Part shown: positions 2,045 to 10,770 of the stretch, piece after piece
Layout: each line of letters begins with the position of its first letter
Numbering within the stretch: the first letter of the stretch is position 1
Assembly (NCBI GenBank): GCA_934293835.1
Contig: CAKQZO010000039.1
Location: 1-12,484, forward strand
DNA length: 12,484 nucleotides
From: an uncultured Lacticaseibacillus sp.
GTDB taxonomy: Bacteria > Bacillota > Bacilli > Lactobacillales > Lactobacillaceae
Reading direction: 5' to 3'
Made by a program: the position numbers and the translations under genes
The notes under the pieces: generated by a model
What the model saw: the letters and a program-made list of their open reading frames with translations, nothing else
What the model was told of the DNA's origin: nothing
Databases searched by the model: none

Positions 2045-2665
2045 ATGAACATTTTTGTTATCGGTGCTCATGGTCAAGTTGGCCAGCACGTTGTTGATAC
2101 CTTATTGGATAACGATTATCGTGTCGTCGCCGGCTACCGCGATCCCGACACTCAGGCGCCGGAGCAAACCAATGCCCAACTGCGGACGGTCACTTGTGAC
2201 CTCACCGGCAGTATCGCCGATCTCGCCGCGGCCATGACCGGCTGTGATGCTGTGATCTTCGCCGCCGGCTCACGCGGCAAGGCGCTGCTCGCCGTTGATC
2301 TCGACGGCGCGGTCAAGGCCATGGAAGCCGCGCAGCGCGCTGGCGTCGCCCGCTTCATTCAGCTCAGCACCTTGAACGCTGGCGACCGCGCCAAGTGGCC
2401 GGAAAGCCTGAACGATTATTACATTGCCAAGTATTACGCCGACGAATGGCTCGCCCACCACACGACCTTGGATTACGTGATCGTACAGCCAACTACGCTC
2501 ACCAACGATGCGCCCACTGGTGCGATCAAGTTCGACCCGACTTGGAAAGACACGATCACGCGCCAAGACGTCGCCACCGTCCTCGTTGAAGCGATCGAAT
2601 CCGACCAGCACCGCACCACCATCAAGATCGCCAACGGCAACCTCCCGATCGCTCAAGCATTGTAA
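2045..2665 (+). CDS. NAD(P)-binding (NmrA/atypical SDR-like) oxidoreductase
   Basis: A 206-residue single-domain Rossmann protein of the NAD(P)H-binding NmrA-like / atypical short-chain dehydrogenase type (B. subtilis YhfK-like). The glycine-rich dinucleotide motif G7-A-H-G10-Q-V-G13 begins the protein. A 'CDLTG' acidic turn, 'DAVIFAAGSRG', 'FIQLSTLNAGD' and a Y-x-x-x-K pair in 'DYYIAKYYADEW' follow in the order expected for the family, and 'DYVIVQPTTLTN' is the typical substrate-domain strand. The start ATG is preceded by GGAGGA at 2033-2038. It is co-transcribed with the aldo/keto reductase (14-bp gap). Family members act as quinone or ketone reductases or as redox sensors; the substrate here is unknown. 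The stop TAA coincides with the first bases of a repeat unit (TAAACCAGAGCGG), so the repeat directly abuts the coding region. Confidence 0.85.
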   Translation: MNIFVIGAHGQVGQHVVDTLLDNDYRVVAGYRDPDTQAPEQTNAQLRTVTCDLTGSIADLAAAMTGCDAVIFAAGSRGKALLAVDLDGAVKAMEAAQRAGVARFIQLSTLNAGDRAKWPESLNDYYIAKYYADEWLAHHTTLDYVIVQPTTLTNDAPTGAIKFDPTWKDTITRQDVATVLVEAIESDQHRTTIKIANGNLPIAQAL

Positions 2666-2785
2666 ACCAGAGCGGAGCTGAGTGCATTTAAGGCGTAGCA
2701 TAGCGTGTACTAATGACGGAGCGAACTTGTTCGCGCAGACATTAGTGCCGTTAGGCCTAGCCTGTTGCTCAGCGCAGCTCGACGA
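2663..2785 (+). repeat. Repeat unit A, copy 1 (long imperfect hairpin)
   Basis: Starts with TAAACCAGAGCGGAGC and ends with GCAGCTCGACGA. The unit folds on itself. The outer stem pairs 2670-2682 with 2768-2780. A middle arm is ACTAATG (2709-2715) with CATTAGT (2740-2746). The tip is GCGAAC (2721-2726), TT, GTTCGC (2729-2734). The 43 bases 2708-2750 are identical to 5911-5953 in copy 3. There is no U-tract, so it is not a classical terminator. The strand is given only as the orientation read; the unit is nearly palindromic. Confidence 0.85.
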
Positions 2786-2911
2786 TAAAACCAGAGCGGA
2801 ACAGGACGGGCTTAGGCATGTGGATAAGGAAGCGTGGACGCAGTGCCAGCGAAGCTGGTGCAAGTCCGCGATTACTTATCTGCAATGCCGTTGTCCTGTG
2901 TAGCTCGACGA
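2786..2911 (+). repeat. Repeat unit B, copy 1 (long imperfect hairpin with the same termini as A)
   Basis: Begins with the same ACCAGAGCGGA end as unit A and closes with the same TAGCTCGACGATA end, but the inside differs. Nested arms are GAGC (2794-2797) with GCTC (2903-2906), CAGGAC (2802-2807) with GTCCTG (2893-2898), GGCAT (2815-2819) with ATGCC (2885-2889), GATAAG (2823-2828) with CTTATC (2875-2880), and a tip CCAGC-gaa-GCTGG (2846-2858). A shortened copy lies at 5990-6060. Confidence 0.8.
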
Positions 2912-3065
2912 TAAACCAGAGCGGAGCGAGGCCGTCCTTAGGGCGTAGCGTAACGTGTGCTATTGACGGAGCGAACTCGTTCGCGCAGACATTAGTGCCG
3001 TTAGGCCTAGCCCATTGGCCTCGCGTAGCTAGCTGTACCCGCATTGCGCCACGCGGCTCGACAAT
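2912..3065 (+). repeat. Repeat unit A, copy 2, with an extra segment near its 3' end
   Basis: Starts ATAAACCAGAGCGGAGCGAG. The tip is GCGAAC (2971-2976), TC, GTTCGC (2979-2984), and the outer stem is GCGAGGCC (2926-2933) with GGCCTCGC (3018-3025). After GTAGCT (3026-3031) roughly 25 bases intervene before the usual end GGCTCGACAATA (3055-3066). The ribosome binding site of the HAD gene begins 12 bases later, so this copy forms the upstream region of that gene. Confidence 0.8.
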
Positions 3066-4328: not shown

Positions 4329-4391
4329 GCATGTCGAACAGCAGGAAGCCCCTTCGCGACTCGGGTCCCGCAACCATTGGAGGACACCATA

Positions 4392-5894
4392 ATGTCGACA
4401 ATTACGATCAAACATCTCAACTTTGCCTATGACGGGCAAACCCCATTATTTTCTGACGCGAATTTCTATCTGGATACCAACTGGCACCTCGGGCTGGTCG
4501 GGCGTAACGGCCGCGGCAAGACGACCCTGTTGCGCCTGTTGCAAGGCCAGCTCGATTACACCGGCGAGCTCAGCGTCCCGGTCGCCTTGACCTATTTCCC
4601 GCAGCCGATCACCGATCCCAGCCAGCTGACCCTGTACGCCTTGCAGGAAACCAACGACTTCGAGCAGTGGCAGCTCGAGCGGGAGTTGAACCTGATGGGC
4701 ATGACCCCTGACTTGTTGTGGCGACCATACGCAGAGCTGTCTGGTGGCGAACAAACCAAGGTGCGGCTGGCATTGCTGTTCACAGACACCGAGCATTTTG
4801 CCTTGATCGACGAGCCCACCAACCACCTCGACGGCGCGTCGCGGGCCTTGGTCGCCGATTATCTGAAGCGTAAATCCGGCTTCATCGTGATCAGCCACGA
4901 CCGCCATTTTCTCGATCAAGTCACCGACCACACCCTCGCCATCGATCGCCAACAGATCACGCTGTATCAAGGCAACTACGCGACTTATGCTGACGCCAAG
5001 GCGAACCAAGACGCTTCCGAGCGCGCCGAAGATCAGAAGCTCCGCCGCGACATCCAGCGTCTCGAACAAACCGCCGCGGAAAAAGCCCGATGGTCGGCCT
5101 CGCGGGAAAAGGATAAGTATGGCGATCGCCACGTCAAAAACTCGGGCGGCATCCCTGACAAGGGTTTCATCGGCGCCCGTGCGGCCCGCGTTATGCAGAA
5201 ACACAAGAACCTCGAGCGCCGTATGGACAACGAGATCGCGGCCAAATCCGAGCTGCTGAATAATATCGAATCCGTGGCGCCGCTGACGATCAACACCTTG
5301 CCTGATCACCACTCGGTCTATATCCATGCCGATCAGCTCCAACTCGGCCACGACGGGACGCCTTTGTTTGCCCCTATCAGCTTCGACGTCTTGCCCGGCG
5401 AGCGCGTGGCTTTGGTCGGCCCCAACGGCATCGGCAAGTCCTCGGTGCTGCGGGCCTTGGCCGGCCATTTTACCGGCGAGGGCACTGGCACCTTGACGCA
5501 ACCTCAACTCGCGCTCAGCTGGGTGCGCCAGCAGATCGACAACCGTGGAACGCTCGCCGCCTTCGCCACGGCGCGCCACCTCGACTACCAGGCCTTGTTG
5601 AACAACCTCAAAAAGCTCGGCTTAGAGCGCGCCAGTTTCACGACCCCCATCGAGCTGATGTCGATGGGGCAGCAGAAGAAAGTCGAGCTCGCGGCCTCCT
5701 TGGTCACGCCGGCCAACCTGTTGATCTGGGATGAGCCGCTGAATTATCTCGATCTCTACAACCAAGACCAGCTGGCGGACAGCATCCTCCAGTCGCGCCC
5801 GACGATGCTGTTCGTCGAACACGACGCCGACTTCATCGCTAAGGTCGCGACGAAGGTGATTAAATTAAACCAGAGCGAAGCTGAGCGTATTTAA
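4392..5894 (+). CDS. Lsa-family ABC-F ribosomal protection protein
   Basis: A 500-residue protein with two ATP-binding cassettes and no membrane segment, matching the ABC-F class. From memory it follows Enterococcus Lsa(A) closely along its length ('DTNWHLGLVGRNGRGKTTLLRLL', 'FPLIDEPTNHLD'-like box, 'ARAARVM', 'MSMGQQKKVE', 'WDEPLNYLD'). Cassette 1 has Walker A G37-T45, signature LSGGEQ at 116-121, Walker B/D-loop ending DEPTNHLD at 140-147 and an SHDR switch. A charged inter-domain linker follows (about 190-290). Cassette 2 has Walker A GPNGIGKSS (about 342), signature 'SMGQQK', and DEPLNYLD (about 447). Lsa-type proteins bind the ribosomal E site and dislodge lincosamides, streptogramin A and pleuromutilins; a resistance phenotype here is inferred. 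The ATG at 4392 is chosen over an upstream in-frame TTG because GGAGGA (4379-4384) sits 7 nt before it. The last residues, NQSEAERI, and the stop are encoded inside repeat A copy 3. Confidence 0.9.
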   Translation: MSTITIKHLNFAYDGQTPLFSDANFYLDTNWHLGLVGRNGRGKTTLLRLLQGQLDYTGELSVPVALTYFPQPITDPSQLTLYALQETNDFEQWQLERELNLMGMTPDLLWRPYAELSGGEQTKVRLALLFTDTEHFALIDEPTNHLDGASRALVADYLKRKSGFIVISHDRHFLDQVTDHTLAIDRQQITLYQGNYATYADAKANQDASERAEDQKLRRDIQRLEQTAAEKARWSASREKDKYGDRHVKNSGGIPDKGFIGARAARVMQKHKNLERRMDNEIAAKSELLNNIESVAPLTINTLPDHHSVYIHADQLQLGHDGTPLFAPISFDVLPGERVALVGPNGIGKSSVLRALAGHFTGEGTGTLTQPQLALSWVRQQIDNRGTLAAFATARHLDYQALLNNLKKLGLERASFTTPIELMSMGQQKKVELAASLVTPANLLIWDEPLNYLDLYNQDQLADSILQSRPTMLFVEHDADFIAKVATKVIKLNQSEAERI

Positions 5895-5987
5895 GGCGTA
5901 GCATAGCGTATACTAATGACGGAGCGAACTTGTTCGCGCAGACATTAGTGCCGCTATGCCTAGCGTGTTGCGCCATGTAGCTCGACA
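5866..5987 (+). repeat. Repeat unit A, copy 3, overlapping the ABC-F 3' end
   Basis: Starts TTAAACCAGAGCGAAGCTGAG inside the ABC-F reading frame and ends ATGTAGCTCGAC. Outer pair GAGC (5873-5876) with GCTC (5980-5983), inner arm GCATAGCG (5901-5908) with CGCTATGC (5952-5959), middle arm ACTAATG (5912-5918) with CATTAGT (5943-5949), and tip GCGAAC (5924-5929), TT, GTTCGC (5932-5937). Positions 5911-5953 equal 2708-2750 base for base. Confidence 0.85.
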
Positions 5988-5989
5988 AG

Positions 5990-6060
5990 ACGCGAGCGGA
6001 GCAGGACGGGCTTAGGCATGTGGATTCGTGCCAGCGGAACTGGTGCAAAATCTCGCTCCT
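5990..6060 (+). repeat. Repeat unit B, copy 2, internally shortened
   Basis: Follows repeat A copy 3, as B follows A at 2786. The left part, GAGCGGAGCAGGACGGG through GGCATGTGGAT (5994-6025), matches B copy 1 (2794-2825). It then jumps to the GTGCCAGC-type tip (6029-6044) and lacks the GATAAG/CTTATC arms and the normal right end. A short closing pair GAGCG (5994-5998) with CGCTC (6054-6058) remains. Confidence 0.7.
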
Positions 6061-6831: not shown

Positions 6832-7407
6832 GTGGCGTCTCATGATAAAATTACCTGGCGCTGGCTCCTGTTGTTGATCGTCGTCTTCACTGGCGTCTTT
6901 TTCACGACCCGCTACTTCGTCGCCAACGATATCGTCTCTGGCAACTCAATGCAGCCGACCCTCCAATCTGGCCAGCGCCTGTTGTCACTCAAACACAAGC
7001 TGCCGCATCGCTTCGACATCATTGTCTTAGATGCCCCCGACCATGCCGGTTCACTGTACATCAAGCGCGTCATCGGCATGCCCGGTGACACCGTCGCCGT
7101 CAAAAACGACCAGCTCTACCTCAACGGGCGCAAGCAAGCCGAGCCTTACCTAAAAACCGCCTTTGCCAAGCGCGAGCTGGCGCAATACCAGAAGGCCTAT
7201 CAGGTCAAGCACTTCACGACCAACTTCGACCTGCGCCACCTGAAAGCGACCCAAACGATCAAGGTGCCGGCGCACAGCTACTTCGTCATGGGTGACAACC
7301 GCCCGATTTCTAACGACGGGCGCGCCTTCGGGTACATCACGCAGGCCCAAGTCGAATCCGTCATCATCTGGCGCTACTGGCCGCTTAGCACGGTCAAGGT
7401 GCTGTAA
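6832..7407 (+). CDS. lepB: Signal peptidase I
   Basis: A 191-residue type I signal peptidase, the size of Gram-positive SipS-like enzymes. It cleaves signal peptides from exported proteins at the outer face of the membrane. One N-terminal transmembrane helix spans about residues 10-30. Box B holds the catalytic Ser39 in 'SGNSMQPTL'. Box D holds the general-base Lys78 in 'YIKRVIGMPGD'. Box E is 'GDNRPISNDGRAFG', keeping the structural Ser, Asp and Arg, but with Gly where DSR is usual. The start is GTG, with an AAGGTGG site (6821-6827) upstream. It follows the OsmC gene by 19 bp, and a perfect palindromic terminator begins right at its stop codon. The pairing of a peroxidase with a signal peptidase has no obvious functional logic and may just be shared transcription. 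Confidence 0.95.
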   Translation: MASHDKITWRWLLLLIVVFTGVFFTTRYFVANDIVSGNSMQPTLQSGQRLLSLKHKLPHRFDIIVLDAPDHAGSLYIKRVIGMPGDTVAVKNDQLYLNGRKQAEPYLKTAFAKRELAQYQKAYQVKHFTTNFDLRHLKATQTIKVPAHSYFVMGDNRPISNDGRAFGYITQAQVESVIIWRYWPLSTVKVL

Positions 7408-7447
7408 CAAATAACCCTCAAAGCGGCCGCTTTGAGGGTTATTTGTT
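7406..7447. terminator. Perfect 42-bp palindrome, bidirectional terminator
   Basis: Bases 7406-7447 form an uninterrupted inverted repeat centred on GCGGCCGC (7423-7430). Arms rich in A/T at the outside give ATTTGTT on each strand after the GC stem (CCCTCAAAGC / GCTTTGAGGG). It starts in the stop codon of the signal peptidase gene and ends 4 bases before the stop of the convergent permease gene, so it can end both transcripts. Confidence 0.9.
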
Positions 7448-7450
7448 GCG

Positions 7451-10063
7451 CTATTCCGTTGCCTTCAGCGCCGACACCATGTCCACGCGTTGCAGTCGTT
7501 TGTGGGTCACCCCCATCACGATGCCGGTGAAGCACGCCATCAACACCGCGGCGACGACGTAACCCGGCCAGTGAATGACCAGCGGGAACATCACCTGCGC
7601 CGTCGTCGCCTGCTTCAAGATGTACCAGGTCAGGCCGTTGCCGACGAAGAAGCCGGCGATGATCCCGACGATGGTCAAGACGACGTTTTCCCGTGAGATA
7701 TACATCGTGACTTCCCGGTCGTAGAAACCGAGCACCTTGATCGTCGACAGCTCCCGGATACGCTCGGAGACGTTGATGTTGGTCAGGTTATACATCACGA
7801 CAAAAGACAGCAGCCCCGACATCACGATGAAGATCACGACCACCGGCGTGAGGGTGCTCGACATCTTGTCGATCGTGGTTTTCTGATCGGCGACGTAGCT
7901 CGTTCCTAACACCGCGTGTGCTTGCAACAATCGGTGCGCCAACTTGGTGCGCTGGGCATCGGATTGGTGATCAAGCCGCACCAGCAAGGCGTTGGTGGTG
8001 GCCGCCTGCCCCCAGGCCTGTTGGTAGGCCGTCGCACTCATGTAGAGGTAATCGCCGATGTAATTCTGCGCGATTGCCGCAATCTTGACCTTCGCCGTTT
8101 TGGCGCCGGTCAGGTGCACCGACACGCGTTGGCCAGGGGCCACGCCTAGAAGCGTCGCGGTTTTCTGGCTGATGACCGCACCTTGTTGCGGCAAGCGCAC
8201 CGGCCGCCCGGCAGGGGTCGTCAGGTGCAGATACTGCGAGAACGCCGCGGTTTTCGGGGTGAACACGTTGACCGCCGCGACGCTTTCATCCCCGTAGCGC
8301 AGCTTAGCCGTCTTCGCGGCGATCGCGGTGCTACTACGGTATTGGACGCTCGTCTGCAACACTTGGCGCGCCTTGGTCGCGTGGGCCGCATCGCGCAGCG
8401 ACACGACCGCCTGATAGCGCACGATATCGCCGTACTGCCGCGTGCCGGAAGCGACGATCGAATCGCGGATCCCAAAGCCCGTCATGATCAAGGCACAGCC
8501 GCCGGCAATGCCGATGATCGACATCACCATGCGGCTCTTGTAGCGAAACAGGTTGCGGTAGGAGACTTTTTGGTTAAAATTCAGCCGCGACCACAGCGGC
8601 GTGATGCGCTCCAAGAGGATGCGCTTGGCCGACTTCGGCGCCTTGGGCAGCATCAACGCCGCCGGGCCTTCTTCGAGCTCCCGCCGGACGACGAAGGCAG
8701 CCGCGCCGACTGAGGCAATCAGCGCAAACACCAGGGCCAAGCCGAAGCTCCCCCACTGGAAGCGCACCATCGTCGTCATCGGGATACACTGGTGGTACAC
8801 CGACAAGATGAAGTGCGGCAGGGTCAGGTTGCCGATCCAGCCGCCGGCCACACCGCCGACAAGCGCCGCGATCAAGGCGTATTCTAAGTAATTCCTAGCG
8901 ATTTCCCACTTGCCATAGCCCAGCGCCTTGAATGTCCCGATCTGCCCGCGCGCCTCTTCCACCATCCGGGTGATCGTGGTGAACGTGATCAACGCGGCGA
9001 TCAGGAAGAAGAACACGGGGAAAACGTTGGCGATGGCGGCGATACGCTCGCTGGATTCACCATACGCAGAGAAGCCTGGCAGATCTGCGCGGTCTTGCCA
9101 GGTATAGGTGGTCTTGGCCGCCTGCTTGGCTTGTGTGCGCGCCGCATCGAGCTTGGCCTGCGCGGTCTGTAGCGTCGCGGCCTGCTTGGTGAGCGCAGGC
9201 GTCGTGGTCAGTGCCCCGCCGGAAGCTTGGGCAACCTGCTTCTCGGCCGCCGCCAGCTGCTGCTTGCCGGCATCGAGCTTAGCTTGTTGCGCAGCGATGG
9301 TCTTGGTCGCCTGCTGGTAGACCTCAGCCGTGCGCGTTGAGACGCGCTTGGCGAAGACTGCCTTGAGCCGCTTGACCTTGGTGTCGCGCGCCTTTTCATA
9401 TTGATCCGCATACGTGTTGGCCCCTTGCAGCGCCTTGAAGCGCACGTTCAGCAAGGTCGCCACCGGCAAGTCGAGTTGGGCTTGCGGGACATAGGCAAAA
9501 AAGCGTACCGTGCCGTCGCCGACGTTCGCCGCGCCGCGCAGGCCGTTGTCGATGAATTGCGGCGAGTCCGCAAAGCCGACGATGGTGAAGCTGTGGCGCT
9601 TGACCTTGGCATCGGCAGAGAAGGTGAACCGTTGGTTGAGCTTGTAGCCGTAATCGGTTTTGGCCTTCTGGTCTAACACGATCTGATCGGCTTGCCGCGG
9701 CAGGTGGCCACTGCGCAGCGCCAGCTGGTTGATGGCCGCGCCGGGTCGATAGCCATACAGCGCGATGGCCTGGGCGTCTTTGCCGCCGGTGGCGTAGGTG
9801 AACTTGACGCGCTCTGCCTGCGCCCCGGCGACTTGTTCCGCTTCCTGCACGTCTTTGGCCGTGAAGGCGGTTGTGCTCAGCAGCTGCACGTCACTCAGGT
9901 GCAGCGCCTGCACCGTCGTCGTCATCGACTCGTTGAGGCCAGGGCCTGCCGCCCGCACGCCGACGAAAATCAGACAACCCATCAAGATGATCATGATGAT
10001 GGCGATGAAGCGGCCGCGGCTGGCGCGGATTTCCCGCCAGAGATTCTTGGTCATTGGTTTCAT
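7451..10063 (-). CDS. FtsX/MacB-type ABC transporter permease with long extracellular domain
   Basis: About 870 residues, a two-FtsX-domain permease. The order is: an N-terminal helix just after 'LWREIRASRGRF'; an extracellular domain including an Ala/Gln/Lys-rich coiled coil (two stretches like 'IAAQQAKLDAGKQQLAAAEKQ' and 'LQTAQAKLDAARTQAKQ'); a first FtsX block with three helices around 'FPVFFFLIAALITFTTITRMVEE', carrying 'IGTFKALGYGKWEI'; a fourth helix plus second extracellular domain after 'KSRMVMSIIGIAGGCALIMTG'; and a C-terminal FtsX block with 'IRELSTIKVLGFYDREV' and three helices. Such permeases work with a MacB/LolD-like ATPase in export of peptides or lipids, or in envelope maintenance. 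Start candidates are GTG 10075, GTG 10072 (GTGA overlap with the ATPase stop) and ATG 10063; I list ATG 10063, with GGTGAG just upstream, but the GTGs remain possible. It is translationally coupled to the ATPase. Confidence 0.88.
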   Translation of the reverse strand: MKPMTKNLWREIRASRGRFIAIIMIILMGCLIFVGVRAAGPGLNESMTTTVQALHLSDVQLLSTTAFTAKDVQEAEQVAGAQAERVKFTYATGGKDAQAIALYGYRPGAAINQLALRSGHLPRQADQIVLDQKAKTDYGYKLNQRFTFSADAKVKRHSFTIVGFADSPQFIDNGLRGAANVGDGTVRFFAYVPQAQLDLPVATLLNVRFKALQGANTYADQYEKARDTKVKRLKAVFAKRVSTRTAEVYQQATKTIAAQQAKLDAGKQQLAAAEKQVAQASGGALTTTPALTKQAATLQTAQAKLDAARTQAKQAAKTTYTWQDRADLPGFSAYGESSERIAAIANVFPVFFFLIAALITFTTITRMVEEARGQIGTFKALGYGKWEIARNYLEYALIAALVGGVAGGWIGNLTLPHFILSVYHQCIPMTTMVRFQWGSFGLALVFALIASVGAAAFVVRRELEEGPAALMLPKAPKSAKRILLERITPLWSRLNFNQKVSYRNLFRYKSRMVMSIIGIAGGCALIMTGFGIRDSIVASGTRQYGDIVRYQAVVSLRDAAHATKARQVLQTSVQYRSSTAIAAKTAKLRYGDESVAAVNVFTPKTAAFSQYLHLTTPAGRPVRLPQQGAVISQKTATLLGVAPGQRVSVHLTGAKTAKVKIAAIAQNYIGDYLYMSATAYQQAWGQAATTNALLVRLDHQSDAQRTKLAHRLLQAHAVLGTSYVADQKTTIDKMSSTLTPVVVIFIVMSGLLSFVVMYNLTNINVSERIRELSTIKVLGFYDREVTMYISRENVVLTIVGIIAGFFVGNGLTWYILKQATTAQVMFPLVIHWPGYVVAAVLMACFTGIVMGVTHKRLQRVDMVSALKATE

Positions 10064-10068
10064 CGCGC

Positions 10069-10770
10069 TCACCACGCGATCTCGGCGACCGGAGTCGGCT
10101 GCGGATTATCCACGACCTCACGCACGCGGGCGTCGTTGATGCGAATCACCCGATCGGCCATCTTGGCCAAGGCCGCGTTGTGGGTGATGATCAAAACCGT
10201 CTTGTTGTCGCGGCGTGACGCGTCTTGCAGCAACTGCAACACCTGCTTGCCGGTTTCATAATCCAACGCGCCGGTCGGTTCGTCACACAGCAGTAGCTTG
10301 GGATTTTTCGCCAACGCCCGGGCGATCGCCACGCGTTGTTGCTCCCCGCCGGACAGCTGCGATGGGAAGTTGTTCAGCCGTGCGCCTAACCCGACTTGCT
10401 TCAAGGTCGCCTCGGCGTCGAGGGCATCAGACACAATCGCACTCGCCAACTCGACGTTTTCCTTGGTGGTGAGGTTCGGCACCAGGTTGTAGAACTGGAA
10501 CACGAACCCGACGTTGTGGCGCCGATATTCGGTCAGCTGCTTGTCGCTGAACTGCGCGATATCGACCCCATCGATCAAGACCTGGCCCGCAGTCGGAGTG
10601 TCCATGCCGCCTAAGATGTTCAACACCGTCGACTTGCCCGCCCCGCTGGGTCCCAGGATCACCGTCAGTTGCCCTTGTTCGCAGGCAAAACTCAGATCGT
10701 GATTCGCATCGATCTTGGTTTCGCCCATCTGGTAGGTCTTGTACTCGTTCTTCACTTCAATATATGCCAC
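10069..10770 (-). CDS. MacB/LolD-type ABC transporter ATP-binding protein
   Basis: A 233-residue ATPase of the lipoprotein/macrolide-exporter subfamily. Walker A is GPSGAGKST (40-48), the Q-loop is '[10 protein letters not shown]' (89-98), the signature is LSGGEQQR (139-146), Walker B is [12 protein letters not shown] (159-170), and the switch is 'IITHN'. The 'NVGFVFQ' and '[12 protein letters not shown]' stretches are typical for this subfamily. The frame is open to 10845, but a GTG at 10770 preceded by AGGAGG (10781-10776, 5-nt spacer) fits the family N-terminus ('[11 protein letters not shown]'), so the upstream part is taken as non-coding. It is the first gene of the operon; the permease start overlaps or immediately follows its stop. 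A divergent TetR gene suggests inducible expression. Confidence 0.92.

What the first reader, a model, noticed from the sequence alone, without database searches (positions are those of the whole stretch)
2663..3065. Mosaic array of hairpin repeats with common ends and two different interiors
Three units in tandem (A-B-A) share the left end TAAACCAGAGCGGA and the right end TAGCTCGACGATA, while the interiors of A and B are different long imperfect hairpins. The A then B order recurs at 5866-6060. Shared ends with exchangeable cores recall bacterial interspersed mosaic elements (BIME/REP) or MITE families, but I do not recognise this sequence as a described one. No transposase is in the window, so mobilisation would have to come from elsewhere.
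Basis: partly seen in the sequence, partly recalled or inferred. Interest (0 to 1): 0.72.

Follow-up and report, generated by a model that had tools for sequence, protein, structure and literature searches.

The report
Swappable DNA hairpins in polar arrays
Lactobacilli carry many copies of a large DNA hairpin whose base tends to stay with its chromosomal site while its core is swapped for other cores, a pattern for which I found no description and no known moving enzyme.

Summary
The units are ~115-nt imperfect hairpins. A covariance model from 50 units matches 28 of 30 genomes of the genus of Lacticaseibacillus yichunensis and 84 of 301 of its family. Helix covariation is strong.

Two related genomes (452 units, 218 arrays) show the build. 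All 234 neighbouring pairs are head-to-tail. Truncated units lie mostly at the right end of an array and keep their left end. Linkers are array-specific and repeat about 5 nt of the left flank. Units of one array share ends (outer stem, first internal loop) even when their cores differ; inside that boundary there is no excess sharing. At orthologous sites 53 of 123 units have no positional partner at 0.80 identity. Plasmid alleles show swap, gain and loss between strains.

So cores behave as exchanged cassettes in a local frame. Orientation towards genes is neutral, against an RNA role. Y1 transposase, reverse transcriptase, Cas1 and IS110 are each undetected in some unit-rich genomes. Hairpin breakage with repair from another copy is the mechanism I favour; it is inferred. 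It is not BIME/REP as defined: no inverted dimers, no obligatory RAYT.

The parts
2663..2785 (+). Unit A1 (hairpin 2669-2783), starting at the TAA stop of ORF 2045-2665
2786..2911 (+). Unit B (hairpin 2793-2909), same ends, different core
2912..3033 (+). Unit A2 (hairpin 2918-3033), A-like core, damaged right end
3028..3065 (+). Right arm of a third core type fused to A2
   Evidence: query 354-403 matches G009, G013, G019 at 78-93%; cf. the G009 unit L052:1430
5866..5986 (+). Unit A' (hairpin 5872-5986); its first bases encode the end of the ABC-F ORF 4377-5894, whose stop lies inside the unit
5987..6060 (+). Unit B': left end of B kept, inner part shortened, right end lost
   Evidence: (D3)

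Best explanation
A family of large imperfect DNA hairpins occupies local intergenic frames. SHOWN by statistics on G001 and G002: the frame consists of an array-specific linker plus the outer stem P1 and the first internal loop; the core hairpin inside it differs between neighbours and between species at the same site; arrays are head-to-tail and polar; linkers repeat about 5 nt of the left flank. INFERRED: the hairpin extrudes as a cruciform or on single-stranded DNA, is cut near its tip by a structure-specific nuclease such as SbcCD, and is repaired from another unit across the conserved P1/loop boundary. This swaps the core, keeps the frame, and failed repair leaves internal deletions. New units are added at the left boundary with a short local duplication (route unknown). 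The fold acts as DNA rather than as RNA (inferred from neutral orientation).
For: Covariation. End sharing stops at the first internal loop: left positions 1-5 0.936 against 0.82, 6-9 0.82 against 0.676, last six 0.906 against 0.814, next four 0.83 against 0.692, each above the maximum of 500 resamples; inner segments no excess; 4 of 5 variable end positions hold within canonical ends. 53 of 123 units without positional partner at 0.80. Different units in near-identical plasmid flanks, and units placed directly in front of a remnant. Internal deletions: L147 against L141, remnants L148-L150, L151. Neutral orientation. SbcD in 30 of 30 genomes. Left and right arms of the core rarely come from different types: of 782 pairs with left arms alike (0.88 or more), 645 have right arms at 0.80 or more and 19 under 0.6.
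Against: Ends and cores are not fully independent: core-similar units of different arrays also have more similar ends (0.864/0.827) than core-dissimilar ones (0.72/0.75), correlation 0.22. Recent donors are rare: in G001 only 7 of 202 units have a relative of 0.95 or more in another array and none of 0.99; an ectopic match of 0.95 or more that clearly beats the positional one was seen for 2 of 123 units. The ungapped flank profile at swapped edges showed no sharp drop at the unit border (outside 0.56-0.89 left, 0.27-0.82 right; blurred by indels). Arm co-movement is partly forced by pairing. SbcD is also in G003 and G023, which have no matches. The shared ends of about 10 nt are short for ordinary homologous recombination (recalled). 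The 5-nt duplication and left-end growth are not explained by repair alone.
Confidence: 0.4

Rival explanations
1. A dedicated but unknown recombinase or transposase recognises the folded hairpin on one strand and delivers units or cores in trans, inserting left of an existing unit with a staggered cut of about 5 nt.
For: Linker 3' ends match the left flank with a peak at 5 nt (19 arrays against 4.5 shuffled); polarity; fold with strand asymmetry kept across a bacterial family; L142 has two units exactly in front of the remnant of L148-L150.
Against: No candidate found: Y1, reverse transcriptase, Cas1 and IS110 each undetected in some unit-rich genomes; no recurrent gene beside arrays (largest family 3 of 880 ORFs); the duplication was not seen on the right flank (by eye).
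Confidence: 0.25
2. A transcribed RNA element (3' UTR stabiliser, terminator or small RNA) kept by selection on the RNA fold.
For: Strong covariation; 50 of 100 arrays behind a co-oriented gene start 0-9 bp after its stop.
Against: Orientation to neighbouring genes is neutral: ++ 46, +- 54, -+ 41, -- 62; fast turnover of cores and unit numbers; G.U only 2.4% and 5.7% of paired cells (no RNA control was run).
Confidence: 0.12
3. No exchange: arrays grow by tandem duplication and cores then diverge quickly by compensated mutation, the ends being held back by selection or homogenised within the array.
For: 14 of 180 neighbouring full units are at least 0.97 identical, so tandem duplication happens; array-specific ends and linkers.
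Against: 150 of 180 neighbours are under 0.80, with few intermediates (14 at 0.85-0.97); core types recur at distant loci (512 and 554 ectopic pairs at 0.84 or more); at orthologous sites the pattern is nearly all-or-none (SSS 18, DDD 25 of 60).
Confidence: 0.13
4. BIME/REP or REPIN moved by a RAYT (Y1) transposase.
For: Intergenic palindromes with a conserved foot; read on the other strand the stem is preceded by CGTC, as in the CGTC-tagged REPs of PMC3733652 (abstract and 12 passages seen).
Against: ~115 nt instead of 20-40; 0 of 234 inverted neighbours, whereas that paper calls head-to-head dimers predominant; no Y1 detected in G009, G013, G019.
Confidence: 0.04
5. MITE of a classical DDE transposon.
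For: Short duplication beside units; many dispersed copies.
Against: No clean empty site with duplications on both sides; ends go with the locus; no larger element with the same ends in the fetched loci.
Confidence: 0.06

Closest known systems
REP / BIME / REPIN with RAYT, including CGTC-tagged REPs (PMC3733652: abstract and 12 passages seen)
   Same: Intergenic palindromic repeats, many per genome, a conserved foot beside the stem, often behind genes
   Different: About 115 nt, head-to-tail only, polar arrays with local linkers, exchanged core, no RAYT needed
MITEs and modular repeats such as BOX or EFAR (recalled; named in PMC3733652)
   Same: Dispersed, non-coding, foldable, some with modular interiors
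   Different: No two-sided target duplication found; the ends belong largely to the site and not to the mobile part
Integron attC arrays (recalled)
   Same: Folded DNA sites in one direction, structure kept while sequence varies, growth at one end
   Different: No cassette genes; no integrase was looked for or seen beside the arrays
CRISPR arrays (recalled)
   Same: Polar array, one end complete, local repeat copied on growth
   Different: The repeated frame is short, the variable part is a hairpin; Cas1 undetected in several unit-rich genomes
Long palindromes cut by SbcCD (recalled; paper titles and abstract starts)
   Same: Large hairpins, internal deletions; breakage with recombinational repair is proposed here
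   Different: A natural multi-copy family with a defined exchange boundary

Membership tests
REP/BIME | Small palindromes of 20-40 bp | tested here: not met
   Units of about 112-122 nt
REP/BIME | Inverted (head-to-head or tail-to-tail) dimers predominate | tested here: not met
   0 of 234 neighbouring pairs inverted; 0 of 116 arrays mixed in G021
REP/BIME | GTAG or CGTC tag at one foot | tested here: inconclusive
   CGTC precedes the stem on the reverse strand of window-type units; other species groups have other ends
RAYT-moved REPIN | A Y1 transposase in the genome, flanked by the repeats | tested here: not met
   13 of 30 genomes match PF01797; none in unit-rich G009, G013, G019. Flanking of the Y1 genes that exist was not examined
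MITE | Target-site duplication on both sides of a unit absent from a sister site | tested here: not met
   16 candidate sites printed, none clean; some of these are artefacts because L001 was not scanned for units; sites empty in both genomes were not sampled
MITE | Related autonomous transposon with the same ends | tested here: inconclusive
   None in the fetched loci of G001 and G002, about 850 kb; whole genomes were not read
Integron attC | Integrase gene and cassette ORFs between sites | not tested
   No gene lies between adjacent units (linkers mostly 3-9 nt); no search for integrases was made
CRISPR-like adaptation | Cas1 in unit-bearing genomes | tested here: not met
   15 of 30 genomes match PF01867; none in G001 (148 unit matches), G012, G021
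Known structured RNA (Rfam) | Match at gathering score | tested here: not met
   11 matches at E up to 5 in the window, none at its gathering score

The most novel reading that the evidence does not exclude
A structure-guided cassette-exchange system: folded hairpin cores are traded among many local frames of a genome by a dedicated factor that reads the outer stem and first internal loop, and new units are added only at the left end of an array. I know of no described system that works like this.
Probability: 0.25. Interest if true: 0.9.

Novelty: new variant of a known kind. Interest (0 to 1): 0.74.

Why it matters
Interspersed palindromic repeats are among the oldest unexplained features of bacterial genomes. 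Here the part that stays (frame) and the part that changes (core) can be told apart by statistics, in food bacteria that can be handled genetically, and plasmid alleles show the change between strains. That makes the question of what moves and keeps such repeats testable. Linkers and cores might also serve as strain markers.

Tried and rejected
Block copying of arrays from locus to locus as the main route: not supported. Neighbour order was shared in 7 of 182 (G001) and 8 of 109 (G002) similar pairs, against permuted means of 3.1 and 2.8 and maxima of 12 and 8 in 300 permutations. The G002 value reaches its permuted maximum, so rare block copies are not excluded.

Y1, reverse transcriptase, Cas1 and IS110 as the necessary mover: matched in 13, 11, 15 and 14 of 30 genomes, each undetected in some unit-rich ones. 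Assemblies may be incomplete.

An autonomous element with the same ends: no left-fragment/right-fragment pair 20-6000 nt apart in the fetched loci of G001 and G002. Phages: no match. Plasmids with the window's own units: no match. IMG/VR: 0 exact matches to a 36-nt pattern.

Exchange helix by helix (nested modules): suggested (six P2 types cover 291 of 389 units), but partner arms resemble each other by pairing anyway, and one search shows mainly whole-core change (SSS 18, DDD 25, SDD 11, other 6 of 60). Not claimed.

Replication-strand bias: 69 against 47 arrays in G021, p about 0.05 by hand. Not claimed.

Dropped: the P2 complementarity count (wrong offset; faulty pattern, replaced); 12 overlapping antisense hits of the same hairpins (464 to 452), which before removal gave 17 apparent inverted neighbours.

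Full report
WHAT IS IN THE WINDOW. The window is from a Lactobacillaceae bacterium: its ABC-F protein is 69% identical to that of Lacticaseibacillus yichunensis and L. mingshuiensis (L001, L002). No whole genome is held for it. The reported units are real. A1, B and A2 lie head to tail at 2663-3033, A' and a damaged B' at 5866-6060. A2 is fused at about 3028 to the right arm of a third core type, a stretch that matches places in G009, G013 and G019. In both arrays the damaged unit is the right-most one.

THE FAMILY. A blastn search of the 30 held genomes of the genus of G001 (the genome of L. yichunensis) matched 7 of 30. A covariance model R1 from 50 units of 7 genomes and the window matched 28 of 30, with 16 to 122 matches each; 122 is the number of candidates scored. 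The two without a match are G003 (L. brantae) and G023. In the family 84 of 301 genomes match, with only 12 candidates scored per genome. Loci L119-L136 come from genomes outside the 30 and by eye show the same architecture. Searched singly, G001 has 148, G002 145 and G021 139 matches out of 150 scored candidates each, so these are lower bounds. The architecture is a 4-bp outer stem P1, a 3x3 internal loop (often GNA opposite GNA, by eye), a 7-bp stem P2, a bulge on the left strand, P3, further helices and a short apex. End sequences differ between species groups. No Rfam family reaches its gathering score.

THE STRUCTURE IS KEPT. On 150 units of G001 (147 distinct rows) 94.3% of cells pair, against 72.8% in shuffles, and 887 cells are changed on both sides against 275 (this alignment was fitted to the structure). 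On the MAFFT alignment of 50 units the numbers are 89.6% against 66.3% and 326 against 104; the count of pairs with a double change is less telling there (22 against 19.4; 24 of 500 shuffles reach it). Slid controls give 32-45% paired. The structure was derived from these same 50 units. G.U makes up 2.4% and 5.7% of paired cells, which is low for an RNA family by what I recall; I ran no control.

TWO GENOMES COMPARED. I fetched 118 stretches of G001 and G002 around R1 matches, so sites empty in both are missing. A profile found 464 hits, 452 after removing overlaps (229 and 223), in 218 arrays. All 234 neighbouring pairs run in the same direction. Of 105 G001 arrays 77 have both flanks on one fetched G002 locus; unit numbers differ at 52 of these 77. 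Of 123 full G001 units at such sites (mean flank identity 94%) 62 have a positional partner of 0.88 or more and 53 have none of 0.80; for 63 of 123 the best G002 match lies elsewhere (random pairs: 0.70). Recent donors are rare: 7 of 202 G001 units have a relative of 0.95 or more in another array of G001, none of 0.99, and only 2 of 123 have an ectopic G002 match of 0.95 or more clearly better than the positional one. Among 180 neighbouring full units 150 are under 0.80 and 14 at least 0.97 identical; 9 of 59 triples are A-B-A.

FRAME AND CORE. Units of one array with different cores (212 pairs, not independent of each other) share their ends: left positions 1-5 and 6-9, the last 6 and the next 4, each above the maximum of 500 resamples of pairs from different arrays. 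From position 10 inward there is no excess. With 257 units of canonical ends the result stands at 4 of 5 variable positions; the fifth (L7, 0.541 against 0.385) lies within the resample range, maximum 0.568. So the boundary lies at the first internal loop. Against full independence: units of different arrays with similar cores also have more similar ends (0.864 and 0.827, against 0.72 and 0.75). One clean case is a single-unit site with 20 of 20 identical left-flank bases, an end variant not among the 15 commonest kept by both species, and units 64% identical. Over all swapped edges, however, an ungapped flank profile showed no sharp drop at the unit border, probably because of indels. Linkers are identical within arrays in 49 of 115 pairs and between arrays in 1.3%; their 3' ends match the left flank (136 arrays; mean 2.93 nt, shuffled 1.80, maximum of 2000 shuffles 2.06), with an excess at 5 nt (19 against 4.5) and longer. 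I saw no such copy in the right flank beyond further unit fragments, by eye only.

POLARITY. First units of arrays of two or more: 141 full, 1 left fragment, 1 right fragment. Last units: 95 full, 45 left fragments, 3 right fragments. Single units: 68 full, 6 left, 1 right. Of 165 arrays ending in a complete unit, 85 are followed at 3-10 nt by a further left-end motif (1.2% in random stretches). Detection bias between left and right ends was not controlled.

STRAIN-LEVEL EVENTS. A casei-type unit (L113) matched 15 PLSDB plasmids, 6 of Lacticaseibacillus and 9 of Pediococcus. Between mannose-PTS IIC and IIB, L143 (CP064307) and L146 (CP064301) carry different units in near-identical flanks; L152 (Pediococcus inopinatus) has the first allele; L151 (L. 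plantarum) keeps only a few bases of the ends; L154, a more distant relative, has none. Between IID and DUF956, L148-L150 (3 fetched of 6 records with that coverage) carry a 40-nt remnant, L142 two units directly in front of the same remnant, L144 one unit. L147 is an internal deletion of L141. These are plasmids of different strains and species, so the direction of change is inferred.

FUNCTION. Around 203 arrays with callable neighbours (a simple ORF caller of my own) orientation is neutral: ++ 46, +- 54, -+ 41, -- 62; 9 were set aside as edge or far and 6 as too close to a locus end. With a co-oriented upstream gene, 50 of 100 arrays begin 0-9 bp behind its stop. I read this as tolerance of the place rather than RNA function; a left-end target preference would also fit. 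In G021 the replichore bias is weak (69 against 47).

MECHANISM. Shown statistically: local frame, differing core, polar head-to-tail arrays, local linkers; seen in single cases: internal deletions, replacement, addition in front of a remnant. Inferred: extrusion, cleavage near the tip, repair from an ectopic unit across the P1/loop boundary. SbcD is in 30 of 30 genomes, as the model needs, but also in the two without units. Four mobile-element enzymes are not obligatory. Addition at the left with a short duplication is not explained by repair alone; this is the strongest reason to keep the dedicated-factor reading open.

LITERATURE. Five searches for the family (25 of 60, 25 of 186, 13 of 13, 2 of 2 and 2 of 2 papers listed) and one on palindromes and SbcCD (12 of 94 listed) showed no paper on this family, judged from titles and abstract starts. 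I read the abstract and 12 of 37 passages of PMC3733652 and no other paper. Subscription papers and IS databases were not searched, so an older description cannot be excluded.

Noticed in passing
window 7406-7447: Perfect 21-bp inverted repeat without spacer between two convergent ORFs (6832-7407 + and 7451-10075 -), probably a shared terminator.
   Followed up: no
window 5866-5894: The end of the ABC-F ORF (last residues and stop) is encoded by unit A', so the element has changed the protein's C-terminus.
   Followed up: no
L145; Pediococcus acidilactici and P. inopinatus plasmids: Casei-type units sit on 9 Pediococcus plasmids among 15 matching PLSDB records, so units can travel between genera on plasmids.
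   Followed up: partly
G001 and G002 units, positions 10-16: The second stem comes in few discrete types: six 7-mers cover 291 of 389 units and combine with different inner stems.
   Followed up: partly
G003 and G023: Two of 30 genomes of the genus have no R1 match; useful contrasts for finding a needed host factor.
   Followed up: no
G001 and G002 arrays with a co-oriented upstream gene: Half of them (50 of 100) begin 0-9 bp behind the stop codon, as does A1 in the window; a left-end target preference is possible.
   Followed up: partly
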